DNA of 43,389 bases from contig JANQFI010000194.1 of NCBI GenBank assembly GCA_028277905.1, positions 1-43,389 of the forward strand. Reading direction: 5' to 3'. Origin of the DNA: Chromatiaceae bacterium. Its GTDB lineage: Bacteria; Pseudomonadota; Gammaproteobacteria; Chromatiales; Chromatiaceae. A program made the position numbers and the translations under genes. The notes below the pieces were generated by a model that saw nothing but the letters and a program-made list of their open reading frames with translations, was not told the origin of the DNA and did not search any database. This document shows positions 6,001 through 24,201 of this stretch, piece after piece; position 1 is the stretch's first letter; each line of letters starts with the position of its first letter.

Positions 6001-9000
6001 GCTTCAATGAGGCCGCGGCGCAATGGCCGCGGAAATAGCGAGGAATCCCGTGGGGTGCCGACGGTGGGACAAAGCTTCAATGAGGCCGCGGCGCAATGGC
6101 CGCGGAAATCGAGGCAGAACTGATTGAACTGGAGTTTGAGGAGAGAGCTTCAATGAGGCCGCGGCGCAATGGCCGCGGAAATGAGAAAACCATGTACGTC
6201 AGTGCTAGTACCCCAGACGCTTCAATGAGGCCGCGGCGCAATGGCCGCGGAAATCTCGGACTGTCCGAGATTCCCTTCTCAACCGGTGGAGCTTCAATGA
6301 GGCCGCGGCGCAATGGCCGCGGAAATCCTTTGGGCTCGGCGGATCCTAAGAGGTCTCGCCAAGGCTTCAATGAGGCCGCGGCGCAATGGCCGCGGAAATC
6401 TACGACCGCGTGTTGTGGCGCACGACGTATTAGGAGCTTCAATGAGGCCGCGGCGCAATGGCCGCGGAAATGCGCCTTGGCACTCCCTAACTTAGGAGAC
6501 GCAAGATGGCTTCAATGAGGCCGCGGCGCAATGGCCGCGGAAATGTCGAGGTTACCCAGCGCCGTGGCTAGAGCGCAAACGCTTCAATGAGGCCGCGGCG
6601 CAATGGCCGCGGAAATCAACCGGCAGCGCCCACCTCAACAAGATGAGGTTCCCGCTTCAATGAGGCCGCGGCGCAATGGCCGCGGAAATCGTCTCGTCAT
6701 CATAGCCGCGCTCATCGCCCATCAGGCTTCAATGAGGCCGCGGCGCAATGGCCGCGGAAATGCTGGGATACCTTAGCTGATGTCCCTCCGAACGGAGAGC
6801 TTCAATGAGGCCGCGGCGCAATGGCCGCGGAAATGCACCCGCTGGCTGGGCTAGGCGGCTGAGCCGCTGCGCTTCAATGAGGCCGCGGCGCAATGGCCGC
6901 GGAAATCCGCTACATGGGGCCATGTCTACCCCACTGAGTTCCGCTTCAATGAGGCCGCGGCGCAATGGCCGCGGAAATCCAGGAGGCCACCACTATGACC
7001 ACATCCCTGACTTCGCTTCAATGAGGCCGCGGCGCAATGGCCGCGGAAATCACCGAGCCCAAGCCGATGCTAGTCGCCCACAACATGCTTCAATGAGGCC
7101 GCGGCGCAATGGCCGCGGAAATCCGGCGACGGGTAGGAGGTGAGGAATGAATAGCGGCGCTTCAATGAGGCCGCGGCGCAATGGCCGCGGAAATAGCGCG
7201 CGGCCTATGGGCGAACCACCCATGATCTGCGCTTCAATGAGGCCGCGGCGCAATGGCCGCGGAAATCGGATCTCAGCCTGGTGTTCTGGCCGGCGGCCTT
7301 CCGGCTTCAATGAGGCCGCGGCGCAATGGCCGCGGAAATGACGGAACGGAGGTAGTGCCATGCCCACGCAGTTGCGCTTCAATGAGGCCGCGGCGCAATG
7401 GCCGCGGAAATAGGCCCGCGATGAGTGCCCGCGCCTTGGCACTCCTGCTTCAATGAGGCCGCGGCGCAATGGCCGCGGAAATCCCCCAGCCCTGACATCT
7501 TCACATCTTGCCTATTGGCTTCAATGAGGCCGCGGCGCAATGGCCGCGGAAATTGCTCGATGCCCGAGTTGGTTGACCTGGTGTGGGCCAGCTTCAATGA
7601 GGCCGCGGCGCAATGGCCGCGGAAATTGTTGTCGGTGGAAGGTCCACGCATTCGTCAGTGCTGCTTCAATGAGGCCGCGGCGCAATGGCCGCGGAAATCC
7701 AATCCACCTAGCGCGGTAATCTTGAGTCAGTCCAGAGCTTCAATGAGGCCGCGGCGCAATGGCCGCGGAAATGTGAGGACCAGGGGCTCAGGCATCGTTG
7801 ATCGCCGCGCTTCAATGAGGCCGCGGCGCAATGGCCGCGGAAATACCTGGACCAACCCGCCTCATCGTCGGCGGGCTGGTGCTTCAATGAGGCCGCGGCG
7901 CAATGGCCGCGGAAATTGGGTAGAAGTAGAGAACGCAAACGGGTACACCGCATGGCTTCAATGAGGCCGCGGCGCAATGGCCGCGGAAATACCGAGAACT
8001 GCTCCAGCTCCAAGGCAAACCGTCGCTGCTTCAATGAGGCCGCGGCGCAATGGCCGCGGAAATCTCCCCTCTATGTAAGTAGCGAATCGCCGCCACCCGG
8101 CTTCAATGAGGCCGCGGCGCAATGGCCGCGGAAATCTCGACGTCTTCGGATGGACCGAAGAGACACCTGAGCTTCAATGAGGCCGCGGCGCAATGGCCGC
8201 GGAAATGGAGCTTTTCTCTCTTATACATATACAAGTAAGTATGCTTCAATGAGGCCGCGGCGCAATGGCCGCGGAAATCGGGCACTTTTGTTATTAAGGA
8301 TAATCGTCGTGGTCGCTTCAATGAGGCCGCGGCGCAATGGCCGCGGAAATCGGTCTACGACGACACATTCCGAGAGCACCACATTTCGCTTCAATGAGGC
8401 CGCGGCGCAATGGCCGCGGAAATGCAAGGCATGAAGATGTCAGGGCTGGGGGATGGACGCTTCAATGAGGCCGCGGCGCAATGGCCGCGGAAATAACGGC
8501 AGCGTCACCAGCGGGATCTGGTTGATGTTGCTTCAATGAGGCCGCGGCGCAATGGCCGCGGAAATAGCGAGGAGCCCGTCTGGGTGTAAACGGTGGGAAC
8601 GCTTCAATGAGGCCGCGGCGCAATGGCCGCGGAAATTATCCAACTGGAGTTCCATATTGCGTCTCCTAAGTCGCTTCAATGAGGCCGCGGCGCAATGGCC
8701 GCGGAAATCCTCACCAAGGACGGGGAGGCGGCGTGGGCTTGGCTGCTTCAATGAGGCCGCGGCGCAATGGCCGCGGAAATGCCACCGAGACGGTGGATGT
8801 TAGGCTCCGGCTCCGGCGCTTCAATGAGGCCGCGGCGCAATGGCCGCGGAAATACAAGCCCCGTTCGGAGTGACAATAAAAATGGAAGTGCTTCAATGAG
8901 GCCGCGGCGCAATGGCCGCGGAAATGCCAGGGTGCACGTTGCCGAGGTCTCGCCGCCCCTCAGCTTCAATGAGGCCGCGGCGCAATGGCCGCGGAAATGC

Positions 9001-11017
9001 CGACACGCTCCGGCGAGAGCGATAGATAGGTGATGCTTCAATGAGGCCGCGGCGCAATGGCCGCGGAAATCGGCACCAGCTTGAGCGGCTGCCGCTCCTC
9101 GTCGGTGCTTCAATGAGGCCGCGGCGCAATGGCCGCGGAAATCACCGGGTCGTGGCCGCCACTGCCGCCGTCGTAGTGCTTCAATGAGGCCGCGGCGCAA
9201 TGGCCGCGGAAATCCGGCGGGCCACGGTCATGGCTCGGCGGCAGGACCGGCTTCAATGAGGCCGCGGCGCAATGGCCGCGGAAATCGCGGCGTCACGCCG
9301 ACCACCCCCTATCGGTTCCGCGAGCTTCAATGAGGCCGCGGCGCAATGGCCGCGGAAATACCCTTGAGCTGTTAGCGCGTTTTTGCCCAAAAAGTGCTTC
9401 AATGAGGCCGCGGCGCAATGGCCGCGGAAATGCCGCGTTGCACGACGCTCCCGGCTGGACGGAGACCTGCTTCAATGAGGCCGCGGCGCAATGGCCGCGG
9501 AAATCGTGCTGCTCCACGTGGCCGCGGTCGCGCAGGTAGTGCTTCAATGAGGCCGCGGCGCAATGGCCGCGGAAATGGGAAAGCGGCACGCGTGCCGCTG
9601 CCGCCGCTGCTTGCTTCAATGAGGCCGCGGCGCAATGGCCGCGGAAATACCGCACCAATTGCAGTCTCGGCTTCGGTCATGTTGCTTCAATGAGGCCGCG
9701 GCGCAATGGCCGCGGAAATGATTTGGTCCGAGTGCCGCGGGGCCTCCTCGATCTCGCTTCAATGAGGCCGCGGCGCAATGGCCGCGGAAATGCCGGCGTC
9801 GCCGGCGTCGATCAGCGCGCGCGGGTCGCTTCAATGAGGCCGCGGCGCAATGGCCGCGGAAATGCAGGTCATCGACCCGGAGACCGTCGATGTCGGCCAG
9901 CTTCAATGAGGCCGCGGCGCAATGGCCGCGGAAATCCGGCGGCAGTGCACCAGTGAATACAAGCTGGAGCCGCTTCAATGAGGCCGCGGCGCAATGGCCG
10001 CGGAAATCGCTCGTGCGCTTGCTCGCGCCCTCGCGGCACCAGGGCTTCAATGAGGCCGCGGCGCAATGGCCGCGGAAATGGCCCGCACGCCAACCGCACG
10101 CTGTTTGACCGGCTGCTTCAATGAGGCCGCGGCGCAATGGCCGCGGAAATGCAGATACCATAGGGTACAATGCCGTTATCTACACCGCTTCAATGAGGCC
10201 GCGGCGCAATGGCCGCGGAAATTGGTGCAATTGGGTGCAACGGTGAACCTCGGCAACTAGCTTCAATGAGGCCGCGGCGCAATGGCCGCGGAAATGATCT
10301 ATGAGGAGCATGGCCACAGTGTCGAGTTCGTGCTTCAATGAGGCCGCGGCGCAATGGCCGCGGAAATCAAGCTTGGCCTGGCCACCCACGCCAAGCAGCT
10401 CATGGCTTCAATGAGGCCGCGGCGCAATGGCCGCGGAAATGGCAACAAGTTCTACGAGCTTGCCAGCGGCAAAAGCGCTTCAATGAGGCCGCGGCGCAAT
10501 GGCCGCGGAAATGATGGACCGGTGCATCGCCGCCCGCGCCGGCGGGCTGCTTCAATGAGGCTGCGGCGCAATGGCCGCGGAAATAGTATTCGTGTGCGCT
10601 GTACACCGGTTCCATCGACGGGCTTCAATGAGGCCGCGGCGCAATGGCCGCGGAAATCCCGGCGGAAGCACCGTCGTACAGGTTGACCTTCTCGCTTCAA
10701 TGAGGCCGCGGCGCAATGGCCGCGGAAATGAACGATTTTGCCCTTCGGTCCATTCCGGTAGATTGGCTTCAATGAGGCCGCGGCGCAATGGCCGCGGAAA
10801 TGCATCGGCGACCGAGCGGCCGAGTACAGCCCGTTGGCTTCAATGAGGCCGCGGCGCAATGGCCGCGGAAATCGAAGTGCTGGAGCGCAACGGCTACGCC
10901 AAGCGCGGGCTTCAATGAGGCCGCGGCGCAATGGCCGCGGAAATCGATGATGTAGGAGTCCGCGCTGCCGGTCAGCTCCAAGCTTCAATGAGGCCGCGGC
11001 GCAATGGCCGCGGAAAT
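2..11017 (-). CRISPR. CRISPR array, 153 repeats / 152 spacers counted by hand; repeat on + strand GCTTCAATGAGGCCGCGGCGCAATGGCCGCGGAAAT (36 bp), spacers 35-40 bp; probably transcribed on the minus strand as ATTTCCGCGGCCATTGCGCCGCGGCCTCATTGAAGC
   Basis: Direct reading: repeat starts at 2, 73, 145, 217 ... 10909, 10982 with mean period ~72.2 bp. Orientation inferred from the ATTGAAGC-type 3' end, the 7-bp stem CCGCGGC-gcaatg-GCCGCGG, and the cas2/leader side at 11018-11276. Confidence 0.99.
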
Positions 11018-11276: not shown

Positions 11277-11570
11277 CTAGACGATGATCGGGGCTTGCTC
11301 AATGGGGGTGAATTCCGCCTTGCCGAGACTGACGACGTTAGGGGTCACGTGGTCGGCGTTACCAAAGTCGAGGAGCAGCACATGGTCCTCGGCGTGGTGG
11401 ATGATGCCGTCGAGGAGGCTGACGAGCTCGGCGTGCTGTTGGCGCGTGAGGCGGCACTGGAACACGGAGAGTTGGAGCCATTCGCCGTAGCCTTTCATGA
11501 GCTTGAAGATGCGCCGCCAGCGGCGCTGGTCGGAGATGTCGTAGGCGACGATATAGAGTCGTTGGTCCAT
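11277..11570 (-). CDS. cas2: CRISPR-associated endoribonuclease Cas2
   Basis: 97 aa, MDQRLYIVAYDISDQRRWRRIFKLMKGYGEWLQLSVFQCRL: typical Cas2 N-terminus; adjacent to the array. Confidence 0.95.
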   Translation of the reverse strand: MDQRLYIVAYDISDQRRWRRIFKLMKGYGEWLQLSVFQCRLTRQQHAELVSLLDGIIHHAEDHVLLLDFGNADHVTPNVVSLGKAEFTPIEQAPIIV

Positions 11571-11785: not shown

Positions 11786-13537
11786 TCAGCGTGGGGTGAA
11801 CTGCGGGAAGTGGTCCAACTCGTCGTCCAGGTGCCGTGCGAACAGTCTTGCCTGCACTTGAAGCAGGCGCCGGTAGCTGAGCCTGTAGCCGAGCAGTGGG
11901 TGTGTGACCTCCTGGCTCAGGCGGCGCTCGAAGGTGGCGATGAAGCGCTTGCGCCCGTCGGGGTGGAGGGCGACGCTGCCGGCGGCTTGGATGAAGTCGG
12001 TCGGGCGCACTTCGCCGTTGTTGATCGCCTGGAGGACGACAGAGTCCGCGAGCAGGGGGCGGTAGGGCTCCATCATGTCCAACGACAGGGCAGGGCGGCC
12101 ATACCTAGGCTGGTGGTAGTAGCCGAGGTAGGGGTCCAGGCCGATGGCGGACAGGATATTGGTCCAAGTGCGCGTCAGCAGACCGTATGCATAGGAAAGC
12201 AGGGCGTTGACCGGGTCCGTTGGCGGGCGCCGGTTGCGCTTGCGAAAATCGAACGTCAGCGAAGCGCTGTCGCCCGGCGCGCGGATGAGGTTGGCAAATT
12301 GTCCGAAGTAGCGGGCCGCGGCGCTGCCTTCGATGCCGAGCAATGCGCCCAGATCGCCGGCCTTCTGCGCGCGGCGGATGTCGCTGTTGAGGTCTTCCAG
12401 CAGTGCAGGCGGGGCGCCGCCGTCGGCCTTCCAGTTGCGGCGCAGCAGGGTGCGCGCGTTCTTGATCTTGGCCTCGACCAGGGTCTTGGCGAGCCGCAGG
12501 CAGAAGGCCTGGTCGTCGGCGGCCCGAAACTGCGCCCGCCGTAGCTCGATGTTCTTGTGCCCGGTGCCGATGGTATGGCCCATGAGCCAGCCCCCATGGC
12601 TGTGCCAACTGATGGGGATGTTGCGCGACATCAGCTCCTGCATGGCCGGTGTGGTGACGTAGACGTTCCCGAATAGGGCGAGCTGCGAGACGTCGATGAG
12701 GCGTACCTCCTGCACCTTTTTGTCGTCGATGAAGATCTCGAGCCGCTCGCCAGATTTGCTCACCTTGGCGTGCCAGGCCTGCACATAGAGGGGCAGGGCG
12801 GTATCGAGCCCGACGGCAAGCGGGCGGGGTGCAATGTCGGCACCGCGGAAGAAGGCGGTCTCGTCCGGCAGACAGATGCCGACGAGCGAGCAACGGGGAC
12901 ACTTGGGGCTGTCTTCCAGCGGCGGCGGGATCTGCCCTCCGGCCGCCACGAAGCGCAGCCCATCGATGGTCTGCTTGGTCAGCGCGTGCAGCTCGTCGTC
13001 AAGGGTGACGCGCACGCGCTCGCGGCTACCGGCGTAGTAGATGACGCCTTCGGTGCAGGTGTAGCCGTGCTCGGCGAGGATGACGCCCTGGACGCAGAGC
13101 TGCACCCGCTCAGGGTCGTAGGCGCCGCGAGGCACGTGGGGGCGCTTGCCGCGCTTGTAGTCCACGGGCGTCACGGTGTTGCCGCTGCCCTCGATCAGGT
13201 CCATGCGGGCGATCAGCCCCAGACGGTTCGACGACAACTGGATGGAACGGGCGTGTATCTTCTCCGCGCCCTCGTCCTTGGCGGTCTCGCCTTTGGCTCT
13301 GTCCTTCTCCGGCGGCGGCAGCTTGCCGCCGGGCCGGTCGACGCGACGGTGCACCCAACGGCCCTCGACAGTGTCCGCGGAGTCGTCCCATTCGCCCTGG
13401 ACCCATTCCAGGTAGGCCAGGCGCGGACAGTAGCAGTACTCGTTGATCATCCGTGCCGGCAGCAATGGCACGTCGTTGTGGAGCTCGGGAAAGGGGAGCT
13501 CGAGATCCTGTTGGCCGGTTGTGGATGCGTCGCCCAT
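11786..13537 (-). CDS. cas4-cas1: Cas4-Cas1 fusion (type I-G adaptation protein)
   Basis: 583 aa; Cas4-like N-terminus (ARMINEYCYCPRLAYLEWVQGEW; CPRCSLVGIC cysteines) followed by Cas1 (PLYVQAWHAKVSKSGERLEIF...NALLSYAYGLL...GLDPYLGYYHQPRYGRPALSLDMMEPYRP). Confidence 0.96.
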   Translation of the reverse strand: MGDASTTGQQDLELPFPELHNDVPLLPARMINEYCYCPRLAYLEWVQGEWDDSADTVEGRWVHRRVDRPGGKLPPPEKDRAKGETAKDEGAEKIHARSIQLSSNRLGLIARMDLIEGSGNTVTPVDYKRGKRPHVPRGAYDPERVQLCVQGVILAEHGYTCTEGVIYYAGSRERVRVTLDDELHALTKQTIDGLRFVAAGGQIPPPLEDSPKCPRCSLVGICLPDETAFFRGADIAPRPLAVGLDTALPLYVQAWHAKVSKSGERLEIFIDDKKVQEVRLIDVSQLALFGNVYVTTPAMQELMSRNIPISWHSHGGWLMGHTIGTGHKNIELRRAQFRAADDQAFCLRLAKTLVEAKIKNARTLLRRNWKADGGAPPALLEDLNSDIRRAQKAGDLGALLGIEGSAAARYFGQFANLIRAPGDSASLTFDFRKRNRRPPTDPVNALLSYAYGLLTRTWTNILSAIGLDPYLGYYHQPRYGRPALSLDMMEPYRPLLADSVVLQAINNGEVRPTDFIQAAGSVALHPDGRKRFIATFERRLSQEVTHPLLGYRLSYRRLLQVQARLFARHLDDELDHFPQFTPR

Positions 13538-13727: not shown

Positions 13728-15431
13728 CTACCTGTCTTCGTCTACGGCCCTGAACAGGCCGAGTCCGAAGTGGCTGCCGTAGCCGAGGCAGATCGGCCCC
13801 TGTACAGGCTTGGCGAAGCGCAGTCGCAGCGGAGAGCCGAAGTTCACCGGAGGTGCGGGGCCGTTGCCCCGCACTCGTATGAAATGCCTTAGACGATTCA
13901 GTTCGACGTCAGCCGCGGCGGGCTGTTCACCTGAACCGGATTCTCCTGGCGCGAGCAGCCGGATATCGGCAACATGCCCAAGATGGGCCATCGGCTCAAT
14001 GCCCACGTCTGTAGCGCATCGCCGGACCATGAGCTCCGCCCGGATCTGCCCATCGAGACTATTCTTGCCGCGCGGTTTCAGGTAGCGTGGAGCAACGAAC
14101 GGCGTCCAACTCACCCATTCACGAGCGCCCTCGCTCGGGCCGAGCAGCGCGCCGACCCGTCGGCCCAGCTCATCTGGCAGGCGGCGAAGGTCCTCAAGCC
14201 TTCCCGCGGCCTCCAGCGCGACTTTCAGCTCCCCGACGCCGCCTTTCGTGTACGTGCCGCGCACGGCACGGATAGCCTTCTGCGCATCCTGATCCAGCCC
14301 CATGCGCGCCCAGATGAGGATGTGCTCGATGTGACCGTCGCCGTCCAGGTCGAGCGGCAGAATGTGGGCGTGCTCATGTGAGCCGGTTAGAGGCTTGCCA
14401 TTTACGTCGCATCCGGACAGCACCCGTGAATAGCCGGTGAACCGCTTGACGGCCAGTCCCAACTGCTTGTGCAGCATCTCGGCCTGCGGAAGGGTTCGCG
14501 TCACCGGCGGCAGGGCATGGTCGTTGCCGCTGTCGGTTGCCAGCGACAGCAGCATGCATTCTACGGGTGCCACCCGCTGGGACGCGGAGCGCGGGCGTGG
14601 CGAGGACGGTTCTAACAGGTCAACCGGACGCCAGTAGAAGACTCGGCGACTGCCCGGCGGTTGGCTCCAGCCGTACTGGCGCAGCCAGCTGGTGTCCGCT
14701 TGCAGGCAGGCGAGCAGGTCGGGTGGGTAGGGCATCAACGCCTTGGCCTGTTTCTCGCGCAGGGCCTTGGTGAGCCGTTTACTAGGTGGCGGTTGGAGCG
14801 GCGCGAGGGCCGCGGCAACCGCTGTCTCGCGCCAGCGGTCGTAATCCGTGGGCGCTTGAGGAGCCAACACGGCCACCTGCTCCCAACCGGTCCCAGGTGG
14901 TGCCAAATCCTGCTCTGCCACGCAATTCGGCACTGGGATCTCGTCATCGGGCGTGGCTAAGCGGGCTTCGATCCAGCTTTCAGACCGGCCGAGGTAACCT
15001 AGCCGCGCGACGAGCTCTGCCAATAGGGCGCTTTCATCAGTGGTCAGTACAAGATCCCAGATCACAGCGAGGGTGGCATCGTCGAGTCGGGCCCAGGTGT
15101 CAAAAACCAGGCTGGTGCGCTCACGGCCGCGGTCGAGGCTCGCCAGCGGCATGTAGTGGCGCGAATGTGTGCTTAGCCCTTCGGGCAGCCAATAGCTCGG
15201 CAGGGACGCCGACAGCTTGAGTATCAAATCGCGAGTGAGGGCGGGTGGCCGACTGGCCCATGGCGTGTCGAGGCCTGCCTCCCAGTCGAGCGTGTTGTAG
15301 CCTGCTGCGAGCAGCGCTCGCAGCAGGCGCCAGGGTGAGGGCGGCCATTCGACTTGACCTTCGTTGACGTGGTGGTCCGGCGGGGTGGCGTGATAGCGCC
15401 CCGCCGGGAAGCGGACAAGTATTGCGACCAC
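13728..15431 (-). CDS. csb2: Type I-G Csb2 (Cas5-Cas6 fused, GSU0054 family)
   Basis: 567 aa, GTG start; MVAILVRFPAGRYHATPPDHHVNEGQVEWPPSPWRLLRALLAAGYN is characteristic of the family; 3 bp from csb1. Confidence 0.93.
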   Translation of the reverse strand: MVAILVRFPAGRYHATPPDHHVNEGQVEWPPSPWRLLRALLAAGYNTLDWEAGLDTPWASRPPALTRDLILKLSASLPSYWLPEGLSTHSRHYMPLASLDRGRERTSLVFDTWARLDDATLAVIWDLVLTTDESALLAELVARLGYLGRSESWIEARLATPDDEIPVPNCVAEQDLAPPGTGWEQVAVLAPQAPTDYDRWRETAVAAALAPLQPPPSKRLTKALREKQAKALMPYPPDLLACLQADTSWLRQYGWSQPPGSRRVFYWRPVDLLEPSSPRPRSASQRVAPVECMLLSLATDSGNDHALPPVTRTLPQAEMLHKQLGLAVKRFTGYSRVLSGCDVNGKPLTGSHEHAHILPLDLDGDGHIEHILIWARMGLDQDAQKAIRAVRGTYTKGGVGELKVALEAAGRLEDLRRLPDELGRRVGALLGPSEGAREWVSWTPFVAPRYLKPRGKNSLDGQIRAELMVRRCATDVGIEPMAHLGHVADIRLLAPGESGSGEQPAAADVELNRLRHFIRVRGNGPAPPVNFGSPLRLRFAKPVQGPICLGYGSHFGLGLFRAVDEDR

Positions 15432-15434
15432 GGA

Positions 15435-16439
15435 TCAACCCCCGCTTGTGGTGGCCTCGCCGGCGCCTTTGTCTTCGTCGTCGCGCTTGGCCTTGATCTT
15501 GTCTGCGTAGACGGCCGAAGTGACGACCATGTCGTTGCGGCAGGCGCCGATCGCATCGCGCAGGTCGGGCAGAATCTCTGTATGCATGGGTAGCGAGAAG
15601 TCCGCCGGCCTACTGGCGCAGATGACCCTATCCTTGACGGTCAAGTCGCAAGCGGTGCGCAACCGTAAGCCCGCGTCGAGCAGAGCCCGGAGCTTGAACA
15701 GAGCCAGCAGGACCAGCATCCGCTCGACAGACTCGTCAAGACCGAAGCCGCGAATCTGCGCCAGGTCGAGGTTGACGTAGAGCGTCAGGCTTGCGGCCGT
15801 GTATTCATCGCGCGCGAAGGGCACATTGCCGAAACCGATCTTTGTGTCGCCTTGTGGGTTCACGTGATCGTTCTTCACACCCCCGGACGGCGCGACCTCG
15901 ACGCCATCCGCTTCGATGAAGGCAGACAAGCTGCGTGCGACACGGAGTCGTCCTCCAGCGAGCTCTTTCTTGGCGAGAAACACCCCGTGCAGCAGGCTGC
16001 CGACGTCATACTTGAGCAGTACCTCGGCCAGCTTCCGGCGGTTGATCGGTCCCGTCTCCATGACGCCGAGCTCGCTCTGTAACTGGTGGAAGAACACCTT
16101 CTTCGAGTCCTCCAACAGGTACGGGCTATTCAAGCGATGGGACTCGAGGATGGTGTCGGTCAAGAAGCTGCCGTCCTTGCGGTTGATGCGCACGTGGGAG
16201 ATGCCTTCCAGGTCTGTCTTCACATCCTGCCGGGCGTCGTCCCAAATCATAAGCTCCAATCGGTTGGCCATGCTCTGCGCACTCTCGACCAGCAGTGAAT
16301 CGCCGTCTTTGGTGCGGTAGGTTGCGGCACCAAGCGCCGGGAAGCCGGTGGGCTGGAAGCGATGCCCTTGTACGGGCTCGAGCGGAATCGCGAAGAGCAG
16401 CCGATGAGTGGCGCCGAGGCGGTTGAGATCGATAGCCAT
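15435..16439 (-). CDS. csb1: Type I-G Csb1 (Cas7, GSU0053 family)
   Basis: 334 aa; HRLLFAIPLEPVQGHRFQPTGFPALGAATYRTKDGDSLLVESAQSMANRLE typical of Csb1; position in operon. Confidence 0.94.
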   Translation of the reverse strand: MAIDLNRLGATHRLLFAIPLEPVQGHRFQPTGFPALGAATYRTKDGDSLLVESAQSMANRLELMIWDDARQDVKTDLEGISHVRINRKDGSFLTDTILESHRLNSPYLLEDSKKVFFHQLQSELGVMETGPINRRKLAEVLLKYDVGSLLHGVFLAKKELAGGRLRVARSLSAFIEADGVEVAPSGGVKNDHVNPQGDTKIGFGNVPFARDEYTAASLTLYVNLDLAQIRGFGLDESVERMLVLLALFKLRALLDAGLRLRTACDLTVKDRVICASRPADFSLPMHTEILPDLRDAIGACRNDMVVTSAVYADKIKAKRDDEDKGAGEATTSGG

Positions 16440-16442
16440 GCG

Positions 16443-18737
16443 TCAGTCCTCCGTGGTGGCCTCGTTCCGAGCCGGATCGAGGCGGAAAAGAAAGCGGGTT
16501 GCGGTACGCTCGTCGATCGGAAAGGCAAGCGCTGCGGCCCACCGCCGGGCCGTCGATGCCGGTAGCGCGGCGGCGCGCACCGCGGTGCGAATGCCGCTTG
16601 CGCGCAGGCGCCGCAGTGCGATGTCGACGGCGCTGGCAGCATCGCCAGACGCCAGGCGGCGGAAGACGGCGGGATCGCTGCGTATATCGAGCACATTCGA
16701 TGCTCCGCGACGGGCCGGCGGCAGTAGGGCGAGGCGCACCACGAGCCAGGCGTCGTCGGGGATTTCTCGATCAGGCGGCGGCTCGACGGCTGACGGGGAT
16801 TCTCGCCATTGGCGTCGATCAATGGCCATCAGGGCGCGAGCGAGGGCCAGGGTATAGTCCAGGTCAACGGCGCCCGCGATCAGGGCTGCGAGATCCGCCG
16901 CCTGGGCGGAAACACCGAAGCCGGGTTGGAGGGGCAAACGGCGCTGACCGCGCTGCGCGCCCTCTACGAGGCGTCGTGCTACGAGGGCAATCGCATCGGC
17001 TTCGCCGCCGCGCCCCGCCATGACCACCTCGGGTCCGGTCAGCAGTTGGGTATTGCCCATGGTCCCCGACTGGGCGAAACGGTCGATTTGTCGACGGTCG
17101 AGAGGCAGCCAATGGCGGCGCAGGCTGTTCCACCAGCGCGCATCCGCACCTTCGAACGTGCCCTGTTGAAGCGCGAGCGCCAGGGCAAGGCGCAAGGCCG
17201 GCTTGCCGTCGTCCGCGGCTGCGATCCAATCTGGCCGGAGTGGCGGAATGGGACCAGCCTTGAATCCTGTGCCGGAAACCATGGCGCGCTCGATCGCTGC
17301 CAGCCCGAGGAGCACACGTTGCCAGCGGCACGGCTCGTCGGGATGCTGGCTGAGCGCCAGCAGGACATCACCGAGTTGGCGCTCCGCAATTGTCAACCGG
17401 GCCGGGGCATGTTGCGTCCGGGTCTCGCGTCGGAGCCGCGCGAGCCAAGCGTCCAGATCGTCCAGGCAACTGAGGCTGGCCACCGCCCGGTTCGGTACGC
17501 TGAAGCGTCCCAAGGGTACGGCAAGATTGGATTGTCCGTTGCGCTCGATGTACCCGTAACGCTGGAAAGCTCCGATTCCACGTGCCGTGCCGAGTCTGGC
17601 GATGGCGCGGGCCAGGTCCAGCGGTTCCCGGGCCGAGCGGGCGCCGAGTTGGGCGCGGCCTTCAGCGAGGAGGCGCTTCAACTCGTCGAGTCGCAGCGGA
17701 CGGTCCCAGAGCGGCATCCATTGCTCGCCGCGAGGGCTCTCGTCCGAGTCGGCGGCGCTACCGTAACCGGCCCCACGGGCCGATAGCGTGAAGGGTGCTG
17801 CGGCGCGCACGGCTTGGCTTTCACCCAGTCGCCGGGTCGCGTGTGCAGCAAAAGGAATCACGCCTTCCAGCATCAGGATGAAATCCACCGGGTTGATCAT
17901 GCTGTCGCCTTGAGGGCCATTGGCATTGTTTGCACCGCCAGCGCCAAAGGGCAGGAACTGACCGATCGGTGCCTGGTGCCGATACGCGGTGCTCGGGCGT
18001 GACCAGAGCGCAGCGCGCAGCCATTGCTCGGCGGGCGCACGCGGCACTCCGATGTGGGATTCCAAGTCGAAGATGTCGCCCAGGCGCTGCAGGAAGTTGT
18101 TGGTGAAGTCCAGCTTGCCGTCGGCACCACCTGTGCCGAGCAAGGCCGGATAGGTCGCGTTACCCTCCTCCGTCAGGACCAACGCCACGTCGATCCAATC
18201 CCGGTGTGCGCCGCGCCAGGTGAGCCGTAGGTTCGGAATCAGCTCGGCCTTGAGCTTCTTGAAGTGGCGCTCTGCCGCGGCGAGTCGCGCCTTGTATTCA
18301 GGTGCCTGGCGCAGGGCGTCGCGCTGGGCACGAGAGAGGCCCTTGACCTTGGTCTCATCTTTGATGAGACGGACGGCCTGATCGGCGTCCGCGATGTCCT
18401 CGAGCAGTGTCCGTGCCGCACCGATCCCAGTTCTTAGATTCGCAAAACGCTCTGCCTCGGAGTCCATGATCGGGTCAAGGCCTCGATCCTTGGTCGCGAA
18501 GAAACCCGAGCCACGGTTCCAGGGCGACAACATCGGCGTTGGCGCGTACCGGTGCAGGAAGAACTGCTCCAGCTGTTCGGCATCGAGCGAGGTCGCCAAG
18601 CCGAACCGCTCACTATTCCACCATCCCCGCGCCTCGGGATCAGCCTGCTCTGCAACGAGCCGCAGGACGCCGATGGCCTTCAGGTAGTGGGCAAGGGGCC
18701 TGGGTGCGCAGCCGTCGAAATGGTGAATATGGATCAT
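16443..18737 (-). CDS. csx17: Type I-G Csx17 (Cas8g)
   Basis: 764 aa; MIHIHHFDGCAPRPLAHYLKAIGVLRLVAEQADPEARGWW...; ATG overlaps the upstream stop (4-bp overlap); synteny with csb1/csb2. Confidence 0.92.
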   Translation of the reverse strand: MIHIHHFDGCAPRPLAHYLKAIGVLRLVAEQADPEARGWWNSERFGLATSLDAEQLEQFFLHRYAPTPMLSPWNRGSGFFATKDRGLDPIMDSEAERFANLRTGIGAARTLLEDIADADQAVRLIKDETKVKGLSRAQRDALRQAPEYKARLAAAERHFKKLKAELIPNLRLTWRGAHRDWIDVALVLTEEGNATYPALLGTGGADGKLDFTNNFLQRLGDIFDLESHIGVPRAPAEQWLRAALWSRPSTAYRHQAPIGQFLPFGAGGANNANGPQGDSMINPVDFILMLEGVIPFAAHATRRLGESQAVRAAAPFTLSARGAGYGSAADSDESPRGEQWMPLWDRPLRLDELKRLLAEGRAQLGARSAREPLDLARAIARLGTARGIGAFQRYGYIERNGQSNLAVPLGRFSVPNRAVASLSCLDDLDAWLARLRRETRTQHAPARLTIAERQLGDVLLALSQHPDEPCRWQRVLLGLAAIERAMVSGTGFKAGPIPPLRPDWIAAADDGKPALRLALALALQQGTFEGADARWWNSLRRHWLPLDRRQIDRFAQSGTMGNTQLLTGPEVVMAGRGGEADAIALVARRLVEGAQRGQRRLPLQPGFGVSAQAADLAALIAGAVDLDYTLALARALMAIDRRQWRESPSAVEPPPDREIPDDAWLVVRLALLPPARRGASNVLDIRSDPAVFRRLASGDAASAVDIALRRLRASGIRTAVRAAALPASTARRWAAALAFPIDERTATRFLFRLDPARNEATTED

Positions 18738-19281
18738 TGCCGGTCCTCTTCTGCGAAACGCTCGATCCAGATGTCTGCGAGCGGCTCCCAGTCGGTGCGG
18801 TCGGCCGCCTCGAGCGCGGCTAGGTAGCGGTCCGTGTCAGCCCCCGGAGCCGGGGTCGGGTCGATTGCCGGCAACCCGAGCCGCCGGAGCAGCTCGGCGA
18901 GCAGCAACCGTGTCGCGCGTCCATTGAAGTCTGCAAACGGGTGGATGCTGAGGAGGCGCCCTTCGGCGAAGGCGAGCAGCTCCGGGAGACAGGCGTCACC
19001 GGTAGCCGCAACTGCATCGATGCGCGCTTGGAGCTCCCGGCAGTAGTCTCGCATCAAGATCGGAACCTGAAAGCCTGGCGGTGCCTGGTGATGGCTGACT
19101 CGGACGTTGATGCGTCGCCATTGGCCGGCGATGTCCGGGATCAGATCGGCGCAAATCGCAGTATGCAGATCCCGGATGAGCGCTTCGTCCGGGAGACGGT
19201 CCGCATACTCGTCCAGTGCGATGGCCGCTTGCGTACGCTGGACGTTCCGCGCGAGGTGTGGGGCCAGCTCGATGCAGGTCA
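18734..19281 (-). other. Fic/Doc domain region at the 3' end of the cas3 frame
   Basis: HPFADFNGRATR matches the Fic motif HxFx[D/E]xNGRxxR except that the usual G before NG is F; upstream AGQWRRINVRVS fits the Fic fold. No in-frame ATG/GTG near the domain start; a CTG overlaps the antitoxin stop (CTGA). Confidence 0.85.
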
Positions 19282-22159
19282 GTCGTCCAAGCGTTGTATC
19301 GATAGACCGAGTGGCGCGAGGAGGCGCTCCAACTCGGCTTCGAGCATCCGTTCGTCCACCGGCTCCCCCTCGAATGCCATGCTCCGGGCGACCATCCGCG
19401 GGATCCGGCTCAGACTGATTCGGCGCTGCCGTTCCGGCGGCAGTTGTCTCCAGCGCCGGATGCACTCTTGCCAATGGGTCTCGGGCATGGGGCTTCTCCA
19501 GTAACGGGTCCAGGGTGTCGAGCCGCGAGGCGCGCTGGTCGGCGGCCCGCAACAGGGCTTCAAGCCAGGCCAGGGTGAATGGGCCGTAGCGCTCGAGTAG
19601 ACCGAGCACTCGGTCGGTCCAGCCGGCGCCGGTGGTCGGGCCGATGCCCGCCGCGGCGGGGCCGAGGTCGATCAGGGTTTCCGGCAGCTCGTGCACGGCG
19701 CCCTGCGCGTCCGCCAACGGCACCGGCGGCAGTCGCTCGCCGTCGCGGATGCCGCGGATGCGGAGCAGCCTGTCCTGGGCGGATTGATCGCCTTTGCCGG
19801 CGTGCCAGGCTAAGCGGAGCTTGCCGTGGTGGGTGCAGACCAAGTAGGCGAGCAGATCGAAATGGTGCGCCGTCAGATCCAGCACCTCCTGTTCCAGCGG
19901 CGAGGGCGGCTTGCGATCGGCGGTCAGCGACGGCTTCGACGGCGCGCCGATCGCGGAGAGCAGTTCCCGCCAGGAACCGAGCAGCGCCCCATGGTCCGGG
20001 TTGTGGCACCGCAGCACGCCGAACAGTGCCAGCGTGCTGGCCAGCTCGTGGCGCAAGCCGGGGCGCCGGCTGCCGTCGGGCATTCGGTACAAGGCTTGGC
20101 GCGACCGCCAAGCGGTGGCGGGCGCCTTGGCGAGGTCGTCCCGAGGGGCCCCCTCCGGGTCGCCGTCGATGGAGCCACGGAAGGCTGGGTGGACTTTGCC
20201 GGCGTCGTGCCAGCGCCCGCCCAGGTCGAACAGGTCGGCAAGACCCGCCACCAGGACCTCCGCGATGGCACGTGCAATCGCGCCGGTCTCTCGCCCGTGG
20301 CTGGCAATGGTCTTCCACGGGTACTCGGACAGGGTCTCATCGTCCAAGGCATCGTCGGCCAGCGCGTCCGCCGGGAGGGAAGGGCCCGAGACCGGCCGTA
20401 CGGGCTTGATGCTCTTCGGATCGAAGCCGCGCGTGGGGTCATAGCCACCGGTGTCGGCGGCGACGAGCACGATATTGCCGGGATACAGGTCGCGCCGGGT
20501 GGCCCACCGCCAGGCGCCGTCCTGCCAGTCCCAGACCCAGGCGCGCTTGCCTTTTGTGAGCCCCTCGGTCTTCTCGCAGAGCCACTGCCGTGCGCGCAGG
20601 AAGGGCACCGGGCAGAGTGCCTCCCGCGTCGGGCGGACACCGGGCTCCGGCGAGCGCCTCGGCTCGACCGCGTGCCAGAAGACGTAGAGGTCGCGCTCTT
20701 CGCCACTGCGGATGAAGCGGCTGATGTCCACATCGGCACCGGACAGGTCGGGCGTCGTATCGAAGAGCTCGTCCAATTCGTGCCGCAGCAGCAGCTGCCG
20801 CGGCTCGAACGGGTACAGCGCAGGAAGGAGCTCCCGGTGCCGCTCCTCGAGCAGGACCAGCGGCAACGGGCCGACATCTGCGCGACCCTCCGGCGCATCG
20901 GCGGCGAGCCTTTCCAGGGCGGTTTGTGCCGCGTCGAGCTCCTCTTGCAGGTAGGGCGCCGGGCTCTTCAGCGGGTCGAAGCGTACGACGGCGACATCGG
21001 CCTTGCCGCCCCAGCGGGCAGATCGCCCGAAGCGTTGGACCAGACTGGCCCAGGGGGCCAACTCGGTGACCAGGAGACCCGCGGAAATGTCGACGCCTGC
21101 CTCGATGATCTGTGTGCTGACGATGATCCGATCGGTACCTGGTGTGCATGCGCTGCGGTGCAGGAAGTCCTCGGTCCAGTTGGCACGCTCGTGGGGACGG
21201 AAGCGGCTGTGTATCAGTCGCAGATCGGTGGCAGCCATGGACTTGTCCTTGGACAGCGCCCTGCTCAGTGCCTGCCACAAATCAACCGCTCGATCTACGG
21301 TATTCAGCACCACCAGCGTCGGACCTGCCGCGCCTCGCCCACCGGCAAGGTGTCGTTCAAGCACCAAGGGTGCCAGCGCCTTCGCGTTCTTTGCCCAAAG
21401 CTGCTCACAGGGCTTAGCCACATCGTCCCAGAGTGGGCCCGTGCGCGCCTCGGGCGCAATCTCGGTTGCGGCGAGACCCGCAACGAGCGCCTGAGTGTCC
21501 GGGCTCTTGGCGAGCCATGCCGTCTGCAAGGTCGCGCTCATCCACCAGGTGACGGAGGGCCGCAGGGTGCGGCCGGCGGCACTATCCTCATCGCGGAAGG
21601 CCTGCAACTGCGCCGAGGTCGCGAGCCCGACGTCCATCAACTGAATCTCGTCCATGACCCATAGGCAGTCCTGGCTCAGCAGGCCGAAGTCCATCGGCCA
21701 GCGGGCGCGGGGCGCCGCGTAGCCGCGGTTCAGCGCTCGGGACAGCAACATGTCCTGCGTGCCGATGATCACGGCGCAGTGCTCGGGGTATTGGTGCCAA
21801 GGTCCGGCCTCGCTGCCGCCCATTAGCGCATGCACGCCGACCTTGCCGGTATGGCCGGCATTTCGGTCCCAAAGCAGATCGAGCCGCTCAAGCGCTGCCG
21901 ACAGCTCTGTTTGCGTCTGCTCCACCAGCACGCGCATGGGCAGGCACCAGATCAGTCGTCGCGGCCAGCCATTGTCGTTGCGCAGCAGCCGATGCCAGAT
22001 CCAGGCGGCGGCCACGCCATAGGTCTTGCCGAAGCCCGTGGGAATGCGGGCGGTGCGGTTGATACACTCTGGCTCATCCGCGAGTGATCGTTGCCAGTCC
22101 CGCGGTTCATGGCCGCCCGATAAGGTCCGAAAGGCATGGTCGTAACGCATCGGCTGCAT
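18734..22159 (-). CDS. cas3: Cas3 helicase with C-terminal HD nuclease, whose open frame continues into a Fic domain
   Basis: 1141 aa: RIPTGFGKT (Walker A), VMDEIQLMD (DExH), QRFGRSARWGG (motif VI), then GRWHDAGKVHPAF and CTHHGKL (HD), an Ala/Pro/Gly/Arg-rich linker, then AICADLIPDIAGQWRR...HPFADFNGRATRLLLAELLRRLGLP (Fic). Confidence 0.93.
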   Translation of the reverse strand: MQPMRYDHAFRTLSGGHEPRDWQRSLADEPECINRTARIPTGFGKTYGVAAAWIWHRLLRNDNGWPRRLIWCLPMRVLVEQTQTELSAALERLDLLWDRNAGHTGKVGVHALMGGSEAGPWHQYPEHCAVIIGTQDMLLSRALNRGYAAPRARWPMDFGLLSQDCLWVMDEIQLMDVGLATSAQLQAFRDEDSAAGRTLRPSVTWWMSATLQTAWLAKSPDTQALVAGLAATEIAPEARTGPLWDDVAKPCEQLWAKNAKALAPLVLERHLAGGRGAAGPTLVVLNTVDRAVDLWQALSRALSKDKSMAATDLRLIHSRFRPHERANWTEDFLHRSACTPGTDRIIVSTQIIEAGVDISAGLLVTELAPWASLVQRFGRSARWGGKADVAVVRFDPLKSPAPYLQEELDAAQTALERLAADAPEGRADVGPLPLVLLEERHRELLPALYPFEPRQLLLRHELDELFDTTPDLSGADVDISRFIRSGEERDLYVFWHAVEPRRSPEPGVRPTREALCPVPFLRARQWLCEKTEGLTKGKRAWVWDWQDGAWRWATRRDLYPGNIVLVAADTGGYDPTRGFDPKSIKPVRPVSGPSLPADALADDALDDETLSEYPWKTIASHGRETGAIARAIAEVLVAGLADLFDLGGRWHDAGKVHPAFRGSIDGDPEGAPRDDLAKAPATAWRSRQALYRMPDGSRRPGLRHELASTLALFGVLRCHNPDHGALLGSWRELLSAIGAPSKPSLTADRKPPSPLEQEVLDLTAHHFDLLAYLVCTHHGKLRLAWHAGKGDQSAQDRLLRIRGIRDGERLPPVPLADAQGAVHELPETLIDLGPAAAGIGPTTGAGWTDRVLGLLERYGPFTLAWLEALLRAADQRASRLDTLDPLLEKPHARDPLARVHPALETTAAGTAAPNQSEPDPADGRPEHGIRGGAGGRTDARSRVGAPPRATRSIDTTLGRLTCIELAPHLARNVQRTQAAIALDEYADRLPDEALIRDLHTAICADLIPDIAGQWRRINVRVSHHQAPPGFQVPILMRDYCRELQARIDAVAATGDACLPELLAFAEGRLLSIHPFADFNGRATRLLLAELLRRLGLPAIDPTPAPGADTDRYLAALEAADRTDWEPLADIWIERFAEEDRQ
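19279..19488 (-). CDS. Putative VbhA-like Fic antitoxin, nested in another frame within the cas3-fic linker
   Basis: 69 aa: MPETHWQECIRRWRQLPPERQRRISLSRIPRMVARSMAFEGEPVDERMLEAELERLLAPLGLSIQRLDD. RBS-like GGAGAAG just upstream of ATG (tGGAGAAGccccATG); SMAFEG fits [S/T]xxxE[G/N]; stop is next to the Fic domain start. Confidence 0.72.
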   Translation of the reverse strand: MPETHWQECIRRWRQLPPERQRRISLSRIPRMVARSMAFEGEPVDERMLEAELERLLAPLGLSIQRLDD

Positions 22160-22181: not shown

Positions 22182-22628
22182 TCAAGTCAATCCGGTTCTT
22201 TGCGGTGTTTCGGCGGATCCTGCGTCCAGGAAGACCTCCAGCTCGATCCGGCCCCAGGGGTCGGGTACATGGTGCAGCGCGCGGATGCGTGCGCTGAGTG
22301 GCTGCTCGCGGTCCATGAGCTGGGCAATGGCTGCGTTGTCCCGGCGGGGGATATACCCGAGCTTGTGTCCGCGCCAGTCGACCCGGACCGCGCGACAGTC
22401 GTAGGGGTTCTGTCGCTCTCGGGTGAGCCGCACTGCCTGCCCGACTGCCAGCCGTGGCCAAAGCGTCGGTCCATCATGGTACTGATAACCTGCGAGCGGC
22501 ACCTGTTGCAGCAGCACAGGTGCTCGGCGTATCGGGCGAGGTCGCGCCGAGGCAATCGCCGGGATGCTCGCGCCGGTCAGCACGCCGATGCCGGCCAGGG
22601 TGCGGGCGAGGAAGCATCGTCTCTGCAT
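22182..22628 (-). CDS. HIRAN-domain protein with Tat/Sec-like N-terminal signal
   Basis: 148 aa from the inner ATG: MQRRCFLARTLAGIGVLTGASIPAIASA + LAGYQYHDGPTLWPRLAVGQAVRLTRERQNPYDCRAVRVDWRGHKLGYIPRRDNAAIAQLMD (HIRAN-like). Stop is 22 bp upstream of cas3. Confidence 0.8.
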   Translation of the reverse strand: MQRRCFLARTLAGIGVLTGASIPAIASARPRPIRRAPVLLQQVPLAGYQYHDGPTLWPRLAVGQAVRLTRERQNPYDCRAVRVDWRGHKLGYIPRRDNAAIAQLMDREQPLSARIRALHHVPDPWGRIELEVFLDAGSAETPQRTGLT

Positions 22629-22676
22629 GCTGAGCTCCGGGCAGTTCTGTTGATGAGTCGCCATTCTCCACGGGTA

Positions 22677-22697
22677 TCCTGTCAAAGCGTGACAGGA
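22677..22697. promoter_or_regulatory. Perfect inverted repeat TCCTGTCA-aagcg-TGACAGGA, candidate operator
   Basis: 8-bp arms, 5-bp spacer, 49-69 bp upstream of the HIRAN ATG that heads the cas operon. Confidence 0.6.
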
Positions 22698-23046
22698 AGA
22701 ACCTACAGGCAACAGGCTCGCGCTTGGACATGGCGGAAGGCGGACTCCCTGCCGCTGCGGCGATGCGGTGATTCCGAGACCCTTCTTGATCCGATGCTTG
22801 GCCGCGATGCCCGGGAGCACAGGCCGCCACGGCGAAACCTAGCGGCTTTGCGCAGGGATTCGGGAGCGGCCTCCGCGCTTAGACACTATTGCACTGGCAC
22901 GCTTGCACCGCATTCTTGCTGCCGGCGACTGTGGCTACCATGGACCCGTCGGGATCGAAATCGGGATCGCGGTCGATGTCGATGCCGAACCCGATTGCGA
23001 TTGCGATCGGAAGAAGGCCATGCATCGCATTTCGGCGCAGCCGTAC

Positions 23047-23209
23047 TAAGGCGATTTCTGTCAACAAACATACCGCCTGGCTTGTCTTTTCGCCCGCCTT
23101 CTGCGTCGCGGCAGCGTGCACAGAGCTCGACTATGCGCCCGCTGCCGCTCCTTGAAGGCGAGCGAAAATCCTGCGCCATTCGGTATGTTTGTTTCTGGCA
23201 ATCGCCTAA
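23047..23209. repeat. Palindromic MITE/BIME-like element, copy A (~163 bp)
   Basis: TAAGGCGATTTCTGTCAACAAACATACCGCC ... GGTATGTTTGTTTCTGGCAATCGCCTAA; inverted ends plus inner GC-rich palindrome; shared with copies B, D, E, F. Confidence 0.9.
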
Positions 23210-24201
23210 CAGGAAGGCTGCCCGACATAGAGGTGCAGCGCCGCACGCAGCCGTTCCAAGACGGCCGCACGCAACTCCGCCGGCGCCACTACCTCGCAGT
23301 CGGCCCCGTACTTCAGGATCTCGAGCAGCAGCTCTTCGGGGTGGGAGTAGGGCACGCTGAGCTGGTAGCGGCCGTCGGGCAGCCAGCTGCCTTGTTGCTT
23401 CTCGTGCCAATGCTCTTCGGCGACCCATTGCGCGCGCTCGGAGCTGACGCGTAGGACCGCGGTATGGGCGGGGGTGCCCGTGTAGCTGCCGTAGGCTTCG
23501 TCGCAGTGGGCGGCGATGTCTTCCGGCGTCAGCTCGATGGCGGCCTCGTCCAGCAGGTCGGTGCTCTGCACGCGCTCGACGGCGAAGCGGCGTAGCCCTT
23601 GGGCGCGGTGGCACCAGGCGTCGAGGTACCAGTTGCCGCGCTGCCAGGTGAAGCGCTGTGGGGAGATGTCGCGGCTAGGCTCGTCGGGGGTGCTGGAGCG
23701 GCTGCGCGGCGTGTAGCGGATACGCAGGCGGCGGCACTCGAACAACCCTTGGGCGAGGGTCGCGAAGGTCTCGGGGGCGCATTCGCGCATACCGGGTGCT
23801 TGCAGGCGGATGCGCTGGGGGAGGTCCTTGATTGTGATACCGCGCTGGGCGAGGATCCGCTCGATGCGCTCGGCGATGGGTGCGGTCTGTGCCGTGATCA
23901 GGCTGGGCTGGAGCTGGCGCAGCAGCTCGCGCGCGGCGAGGAGTGCGTGGAGCTCGGTGGTGGTGAACCAGAGTCCGGGGACCTCGTCGGCGGCATCGGC
24001 CACTGGGCCCGCCAGGTACCAACCGCCGCGGCGGCGGTCGAAAGCGAGTGGGGCGCCAAAGTCGTCGCGATAGCTGTGCAGTATGCGCCGGGCGGTAGAC
24101 TCGGAGCATTCCATGCGGTCCATGAGCTGGCGCAGCGTGATGGGAGTACGCCGCCCGCTGAGGATTCGCTTGAGCTGGGTGATGCGGTGCAGTTTGTCCA
24201 T
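23206..24201 (-). CDS. HTH/WYL-domain transcriptional regulator
   Basis: From inner ATG: MDKLHRITQLKRILSGRRTPITLRQLMDRMECSESTARRILHSYRDDFGAPLAFDRRRGGWYL...; WYL region QRFTWQRGNWYLDAWCHRAQGLRRFAVERV. Confidence 0.9.
   Translation of the reverse strand: MDKLHRITQLKRILSGRRTPITLRQLMDRMECSESTARRILHSYRDDFGAPLAFDRRRGGWYLAGPVADAADEVPGLWFTTTELHALLAARELLRQLQPSLITAQTAPIAERIERILAQRGITIKDLPQRIRLQAPGMRECAPETFATLAQGLFECRRLRIRYTPRSRSSTPDEPSRDISPQRFTWQRGNWYLDAWCHRAQGLRRFAVERVQSTDLLDEAAIELTPEDIAAHCDEAYGSYTGTPAHTAVLRVSSERAQWVAEEHWHEKQQGSWLPDGRYQLSVPYSHPEELLLEILKYGADCEVVAPAELRAAVLERLRAALHLYVGQPSC

What the first reader, a model, noticed from the sequence alone, without database searches (positions are those of the whole stretch)
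18734..19488. Fic AMPylase in-frame behind Cas3, with a VbhA-like antitoxin ORF nested out-of-frame in the linker
Seen directly: the cas3 frame has no stop until 18734 and its last ~180 aa carry a Fic motif (HPFADFNGRATR). The ~65-aa segment between HD and Fic looks like out-of-frame protein (TTAAGTAAPNQSEPDPADGRPEHGIRGGAGGRTDARSRVGAPPRATRS). Another frame over the same DNA encodes a coherent 69-aa protein with its own GGAGAAG RBS and ATG (19488), containing SMAFEG. Established: class I Fic toxins are inhibited by small antitoxins (VbhA type) through an [S/T]xxxE[G/N] helix. Inference: a Fic toxin-antitoxin module is built into a type I-G effector operon, so that Cas3 production is coupled to an AMPylase and the antitoxin is made separately. 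It could act as an abortive-infection or anti-loss guard of the CRISPR system.
Basis: partly seen in the sequence, partly recalled or inferred. Interest (0 to 1): 0.93.

Follow-up and report, generated by a model that had tools for sequence, protein, structure and literature searches.

The report
Antitoxin gene nested inside Cas3–Fic fusion
In a widespread branch of type I-G CRISPR systems the DNA-destroying enzyme Cas3 carries a toxin-like Fic domain on its tail, and the DNA coding for the linker also encodes, in another reading frame, a small protein that looks like the matching antidote, so the immune system seems to have a poison-and-antidote lock built into its own effector gene.

Summary
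On the minus strand the cas3g frame (1141 aa) runs without a stop into a Fic domain. The linker is an out-of-frame by-product of a real 69-aa gene (19488-19279).

The layout is not an accident of one genome. I found cas3, nested small ORF and fic in about 25 type I-G loci, including two Thiocapsa isolates. The Cas3 frame is stop-free across the small gene in 24/24. Non-CRISPR relatives mostly have their own fic ATG inside the antitoxin gene; that ATG is gone in the I-G loci, so Fic is most simply made as a Cas3 fusion.

The small ORF is under strong purifying selection and carries the SxxxEG inhibitory motif. Some relatives carry it fused to Fic in one frame, and that protein folds like self-inhibited Fic enzymes. 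The antitoxin reading is therefore well supported, despite no sequence match to YhfG or any Pfam family.

In at least six loci Cas3 and Fic were lost or replaced but the nested antitoxin was kept, as expected of an addiction module. Anti-loss guarding is my preferred function; abortive infection remains open. No wet-lab test exists, and the Fic motif (FNGR instead of GNGR) leaves AMPylation unproven.

The parts
18734..22159 (-). cas3g-fic fused ORF, 1141 aa: helicase/HD Cas3g (aa ~1-880), disordered linker (aa 889-951), Fic domain (aa ~945-1141)
19279..19488 (-). nested antitoxin gene, 69 aa, stop included; the Cas3/Fic frame is the +2 frame relative to it
19493..19499 (-). GGAGAAG ribosome-binding-site-like sequence of the antitoxin gene, lying in the Cas3 codons for LLEK
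   Evidence: a GGAG is seen at this place in several homologues; expression not tested
19366..19383 (-). SMAFEG inhibitory motif of the antitoxin (Glu40 at 19371-19369)
   Evidence: motif meaning from PMC3667792
18737..19327 (-). Fic domain in the Cas3 frame (aa 945-1141); its first residues ATRSIDTTLG overlap the antitoxin 3' end
18908..18943 (-). Fic signature HPFADFNGRATR (canonical HxFx[D/E]GNGRxxR with F for the first G)
16443..18737 (-). csx17/cas8g1, start codon overlapping the cas3-fic stop
   Evidence: TIGR04113, 3e-169
15435..16439 (-). csb1/cas7g
13728..15431 (-). csb2 (cas5/6)
11786..13537 (-). cas4g-cas1g fusion
   Evidence: NF049935, 7e-243
11277..11570 (-). cas2
   Evidence: TIGR01573, 2.5e-10
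23206..24153 (-). putative WYL-type regulator upstream of the operon; the orphan antitoxins of several relatives lie right behind its homologue
   Evidence: WYL assignment by eye, no NCBIfam match

Best explanation
A class I-like Fic toxin-antitoxin module has been built into the effector gene of a type I-G CRISPR system. The toxin domain is made as the C-terminal part of Cas3 (Cas3-linker-Fic). [quoted passage not shown] While the operon is expressed the antitoxin is in supply and Fic is silent. If the locus is deleted or replaced, antitoxin is no longer made and the remaining Cas3-Fic harms the cell, so loss of the CRISPR system is punished unless the antitoxin is kept. Shown here by comparative sequence analysis: the fusion frame, the nested gene, selection on both, the motif, the natural antitoxin-Fic fusion and its modelled fold, and the relic pattern. 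Inferred: toxicity, neutralisation, antitoxin lability and the guarding role.
For: Fusion: 16 loci have an intact 1052-1173 aa Cas3-Fic ORF with HPFxDFNGRxxR. The Cas3 frame is open through the antitoxin gene in 24/24 loci, against 7/16 non-CRISPR antitoxin-Fic pairs (Fisher p 4e-5) and 2/9 orphans (8e-6) (relatedness ignored). In most non-CRISPR pairs the Fic frame has its own ATG inside the antitoxin gene; in the 20 I-G loci inspected there is no ATG/GTG/TTG at that place, except a GTG at the antitoxin stop in Thiocapsa. The conserved Fic N-terminus lies upstream of the antitoxin stop and folds as part of the domain. One locus is a 1866-aa Cas3-Fic-Cas8g ORF (L161). Antitoxin: dN/dS 0.04-0.26 in its own frame. 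The SxxxE motif is kept in all Fic-linked copies read. In-frame antitoxin-Fic single proteins occur in three genomes. The AlphaFold model of one (pLDDT 89, pTM 0.84) matches self-inhibited class II Fic structures over about 255 columns (FICD TM up to 0.72, also SoFic). Guard: orphan antitoxins remain after loss or replacement of Cas3-Fic in L097, L098, L101, L114, L119, L121; L101 and L121 keep decayed Cas3 tails. Five orphan genomes hold no Fic relative at E<=1e-6. Loci with broken Fic but intact antitoxin exist (L103, L107, L116). An antitoxin-independent search with Fic over 369 class genomes found no case lacking the antitoxin, apart from one cut off by a contig end. Related pairs sit on conjugative Rhodococcus plasmids.
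Against: No experiment exists. The Fic motif has F at the first G of GNGR, so the activity may not be AMPylation, or may be weak. Two orphan antitoxins (L097, L114) have lost the inhibitory Glu (SMAFAG), so long-term retention of orphans is not always retention of inhibition. Antitoxin and toxin lie on the same DNA, so guarding needs a labile antitoxin, which is not shown. The window itself has TTG and GTG codons in the Fic frame near the antitoxin start, so a separate, extended Fic product cannot be excluded.
Confidence: 0.6

Rival explanations
1. Same toxin-antitoxin module, but acting mainly as an abortive-infection effector: Cas3-Fic rides on Cascade, and when a phage shuts off host expression or Cas3 is engaged, the antitoxin is lost or displaced and Fic arrests the cell.
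For: Cas3 is a stable subunit of the type I-G effector (PMC9638904), so the fusion would tether the toxin to the target-recognising complex. Fic proteins act in abortive infection elsewhere (Sofic, PMC12249575). The domain is kept fused rather than merely adjacent.
Against: Does not by itself explain orphan antitoxins where Cas3-Fic was deleted or replaced. No phage or viral-contig relatives that might point to counter-defence were found.
Confidence: 0.25
2. The Fic domain is not fused in practice: Cas3 is read through only as a by-product, and functional Fic is started separately (non-AUG start, re-initiation at the antitoxin stop, or frameshift), giving an ordinary TA operon between cas3 and csx17.
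For: Thiocapsa loci have a GTGA overlap at the antitoxin stop, and most others have CTGA. The window has TTG and GTG in frame near the antitoxin start. Non-CRISPR relatives do start Fic separately.
Against: No conserved canonical start in the I-G loci. Residues upstream of CTG/GTG are conserved and structured. 24/24 loci keep the Cas3 frame open. A Cas3-Fic-Cas8g ORF exists.
Confidence: 0.15
3. The Fic domain is a regulator rather than a toxin: it modifies Cas3, Cas8g or another Cas protein to hold the effector off, and the small protein sets that switch.
For: Covalent placement on Cas3; non-canonical FNGR motif. A Fic-antitoxin complex can act as a deAMPylase (PMC13327609, abstract).
Against: About half of the type I-G loci of the same family lack it and keep otherwise complete effectors (G022, G025 C119, G086, G219, G220). 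The same antitoxin-Fic pair exists without any CRISPR.
Confidence: 0.08
4. Artefact: an assembly frameshift joined cas3 and fic, and the small ORF is a chance frame.
For: The window genome is a 711-contig draft at 86% completeness.
Against: Same layout in isolates and in about 25 loci across several classes; dN/dS of the small ORF 0.04-0.26.
Confidence: 0.01

Closest known systems
Class I Fic toxin-antitoxin modules (VbhT/VbhA, EcFicT/EcFicA YhfG)
   Same: Small antitoxin gene upstream of fic (overlapping it in E. coli yhfG-fic), SxxxE[G/N] inhibitory helix, Fic fold with conserved catalytic His and both Arg
   Different: Toxin is fused to Cas3 and has no conserved start of its own; antitoxin is fully nested out of frame in the fused ORF; antitoxin family has no sequence match to YhfG or to any PDB chain; motif FNGR instead of GNGR
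Class II Fic proteins (FICD/HYPE, SoFic)
   Same: The single-chain antitoxin-Fic relatives (L088-L090) fold like them, inhibitory helix N-terminal
   Different: In the window the helix is a separate protein
CreTA (CRISPR-regulated toxin-antitoxin RNA pairs guarding type I CRISPR-Cas)
   Same: A toxin-antitoxin pair placed in a CRISPR locus that would make loss of the system costly
   Different: CreTA is an RNA pair whose toxin is repressed by Cascade with a crRNA-like guide (PMC9458426, PMC10097628, abstracts); here toxin and antitoxin are proteins and the toxin is part of Cas3
Fic/DOC genes in type I cas loci and the Geobacter mobile mystery protein A/B pair (PMC3936711)
   Same: A Fic gene, in Geobacter with an antitoxin, inside a type I cas locus; the window Fic resembles TIGR02613 below its cut-off (36 of 124 bits)
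   Different: There separate genes with a TIGR02612 partner; no Cas3 fusion or nested antitoxin was described in the passages read

Membership tests
Type I-G CRISPR-Cas | Cas3g, Cas8g (Csx17), Cas7g (Csb1), Csb2, Cas4-Cas1 fusion, Cas2 in one locus with a CRISPR array | tested here: met
   All six families found; array-like repeats at about 8.7-11 kb visible (read by eye, not run through a repeat finder)
Fic (PF02661) domain proteins | Pfam Fic domain over gathering score | tested here: met
   37.8-42.2 bits against 24
Canonical AMPylating Fic | HxFx[D/E]GNGRxxR motif | tested here: not met
   HPFADFNGRATR, F for the first G, in the relatives read; His, Asp, Asn, Gly, both Arg kept
Class I Fic antitoxin (VbhA type) | [S/T]xxxE[G/N] in a helix of a small protein encoded just upstream of fic | tested here: met
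   SMAFEG, helix 18-39 in the L088 model; directly upstream of this Fic
Class I Fic antitoxin (VbhA type) | Sequence homology to VbhA/YhfG families | tested here: not met
   No Pfam family shared by members, no antitoxin hit in the PDB sequences, hhalign to YhfG probability 0.5%
Class I Fic antitoxin (VbhA type) | Neutralises toxicity through the inhibitory Glu | not testable with these tools
   Needs expression assays
CRISPR guard (CreTA-like function) | Loss of the CRISPR locus is harmful unless the antidote is kept | tested here: inconclusive
   Orphan antitoxins in at least six loci agree; no direct assay
CreTA | Small RNA toxin repressed by Cascade with a crRNA-like CreA guide | not tested
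   Different components here; not searched for

The most novel reading that the evidence does not exclude
A protein toxin-antitoxin lock that is part of the CRISPR effector itself: Cas3 bears the toxin, the antidote is a fully nested overlapping gene in the linker, and the cassette was taken up by more than one Cas3g lineage as a protein counterpart of CreTA, leaving antidote relics where the system was lost.
Probability: 0.5. Interest if true: 0.93.

Novelty: new variant of a known kind. Interest (0 to 1): 0.87.

Why it matters
It would show that a CRISPR system can be made hard to lose by a protein toxin welded to its nuclease, with the antidote hidden out of frame in the same gene, and it makes that idea directly testable. 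It gives a rare bacterial case of a small gene fully nested in a conserved protein fusion, with selection visible on both products. It also warns that a type I-G Cas3 taken from such a locus for genome engineering would carry a Fic toxin-like domain, and that its antidote may be missed by annotation.

Tried and rejected
Sequence homology of the antitoxin to Pfam, NCBIfam, PADLOC or PDB entries: nothing usable. hhalign to E. coli YhfG: not significant. Viral contigs and phage records: no relatives. Two joint alignments for folding failed because MAFFT put the short antitoxin rows on the Fic part; trimming the rows gave A4. A phylum search centred on a Desulfocapsa locus was not accepted. An assembly frameshift was considered and rejected (isolates, dN/dS). 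Mobile mystery protein A/B was considered as the identity of the pair: the Fic is below its cut-off and the small ORF did not match the NCBIfam library at all.

Full report
What is there. The window is a complete type I-G CRISPR locus on the minus strand: cas3g, csx17/cas8g1, csb1, csb2, cas4-cas1, cas2, then array-like repeats. The cas3 frame (22159-18734, 1141 aa) does not stop where Cas3g models end (aa about 880). It runs on into a Fic domain. Between the two, another frame encodes a 69-aa protein with its own GGAGAAG and ATG at 19488; its TGA overlaps the Fic frame.

Is the small ORF a gene? Yes. Homologues were found in the family and in 52 named loci. In four pairs of loci dN/dS is 0.04-0.26 in its frame and, where measurable, 1.45-3.2 in the Cas3 frame over the same bases. 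The core RWRxLPPEExxRIRLxRIPRKVARSMAFEGEPVDExML is conserved. Over the last 24 codons the pattern reverses: the Fic frame (ATRxxxTTLGxLSY) is more conserved than the antitoxin frame (57% against 43% mean identity).

Is the fusion real? The Cas3 frame is stop-free through the antitoxin gene in 24/24 I-G loci, with a chance of 0.04-0.34 each under synonymous recoding. Sixteen loci hold an intact Cas3-Fic ORF with the full motif. The informative contrast is with Verrucomicrobia antitoxin-Fic pairs that have no type I-G genes beside them. There the Fic frame usually meets a stop and then an ATG inside the antitoxin gene, as in MAGETTPPDGATRFIETTRGVLSY of L128. In the I-G loci both are gone and no canonical start replaces them, apart from a GTG at the antitoxin stop in Thiocapsa. 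A model of the 1141-aa protein gives pLDDT below 50 over aa 889-951, the linker, and an ordered Fic domain beginning with a hairpin at 952-961. One locus is Cas3-Fic-Cas8g in a single 1866-aa ORF.

Is the small protein the antitoxin of this Fic? Three findings say so. It is directly upstream of this Fic family, including in an antitoxin-independent search of 369 class genomes with Fic as query; the one exception is cut off by a contig end. In three genomes the two are one protein in one frame. The model of that natural fusion (pLDDT 89, pTM 0.84) matches FICD and SoFic, enzymes that carry their inhibitory helix N-terminally. The SxxxE motif is the one whose Glu competes with the gamma-phosphate for the second motif arginine in VbhA/VbhT, SoFic and NmFic (PMC3667792). 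Sequence homology to known antitoxins was not found.

What is it for? In L097, L098, L101, L114, L119 and L121 the antitoxin survives although Cas3-Fic is gone. L098 shows no CRISPR genes in the stretch held, which ends with its contig. In L097 and L121 the neighbouring genes are a different I-G operon (in L097 Csb1, Csb2 and Cas3g were identified), and L114 and L119 have a distant Cas3 downstream. L101 and L121 keep decayed Cas3 tails. Five orphan genomes, four of them 99-100% complete, contain no Fic relative at E<=1e-6. Keeping a 200-bp gene that lies between and overlaps two lost genes, six times over, is what an addiction module predicts. Broken Fic with intact antitoxin also occurs (L103, L107, L116). 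Two orphans have lost the Glu (L097, L114), so some relics are probably no longer active. Related pairs on conjugative Rhodococcus plasmids fit the same role.

Evolution. On the Cas3 tree the fused state occurs in two deep Cas3g clades and is interleaved with plain Cas3g; well-supported branches force at least three changes of state. The I-G Fic domains also do not form one clade (weak deep support). I read this as repeated gain or exchange of the cassette at the cas3-csx17 junction, though losses would also fit.

Known context. Fic genes in type I cas loci, and a Fic plus antitoxin partner in Geobacter, were reported in 2013 (PMC3936711). CreTA RNA guards are known. Searches of the open library found no report of a Cas3-Fic fusion or of a nested antitoxin; most subscription papers and preprints are not covered.

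Limits. All functional claims are inferred. The FNGR motif means that the modification, if any, may not be AMPylation. The number of independent loci is smaller than the number counted, because several are close relatives, and some come from metagenome-assembled genomes whose taxonomic labels may be off.

Noticed in passing
L161 2251-7851 (-): A single 1866-aa ORF joins Cas3, Fic and Cas8g (Csx17) with the antitoxin nested inside.
   Followed up: partly
L088 6311-7150, L089 5990-6829 (-), L090 4960-5697: Antitoxin and Fic are one protein in one frame, placed just upstream of a Cas3g; in L088 the next genes are Cas8g2 and Csb1. L088 and L089 also carry a separate orphan antitoxin beside the WYL-like gene.
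   Followed up: partly
L097 and L114, antitoxin: Orphan antitoxins carry SMAFAG, the inhibitory Glu replaced by Ala.
   Followed up: no
L141 about 9000-9190: An antitoxin relative upstream of an I-G operon that has no Fic.
   Followed up: no
own genome contigs C442 and C640 (L030): A second csx17 and a second cas3 without Fic: the organism seems to hold another type I-G system.
   Followed up: no
L031 7704-8555 (Rhodococcus plasmid): A distant antitoxin-Fic pair on conjugative plasmids, genes not overlapping.
   Followed up: partly
L029 935-2035 (-): Match to NF049934, 'Cas3-extension family', next to the replacement I-G Cas3.
   Followed up: no
window 22182-22820 (-): A 212-aa ORF between the WYL-like gene and cas3 that resembles HIRAN-domain proteins by eye; relatives lie upstream of cas3 in L103/L166 too; no NCBIfam match.
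   Followed up: no
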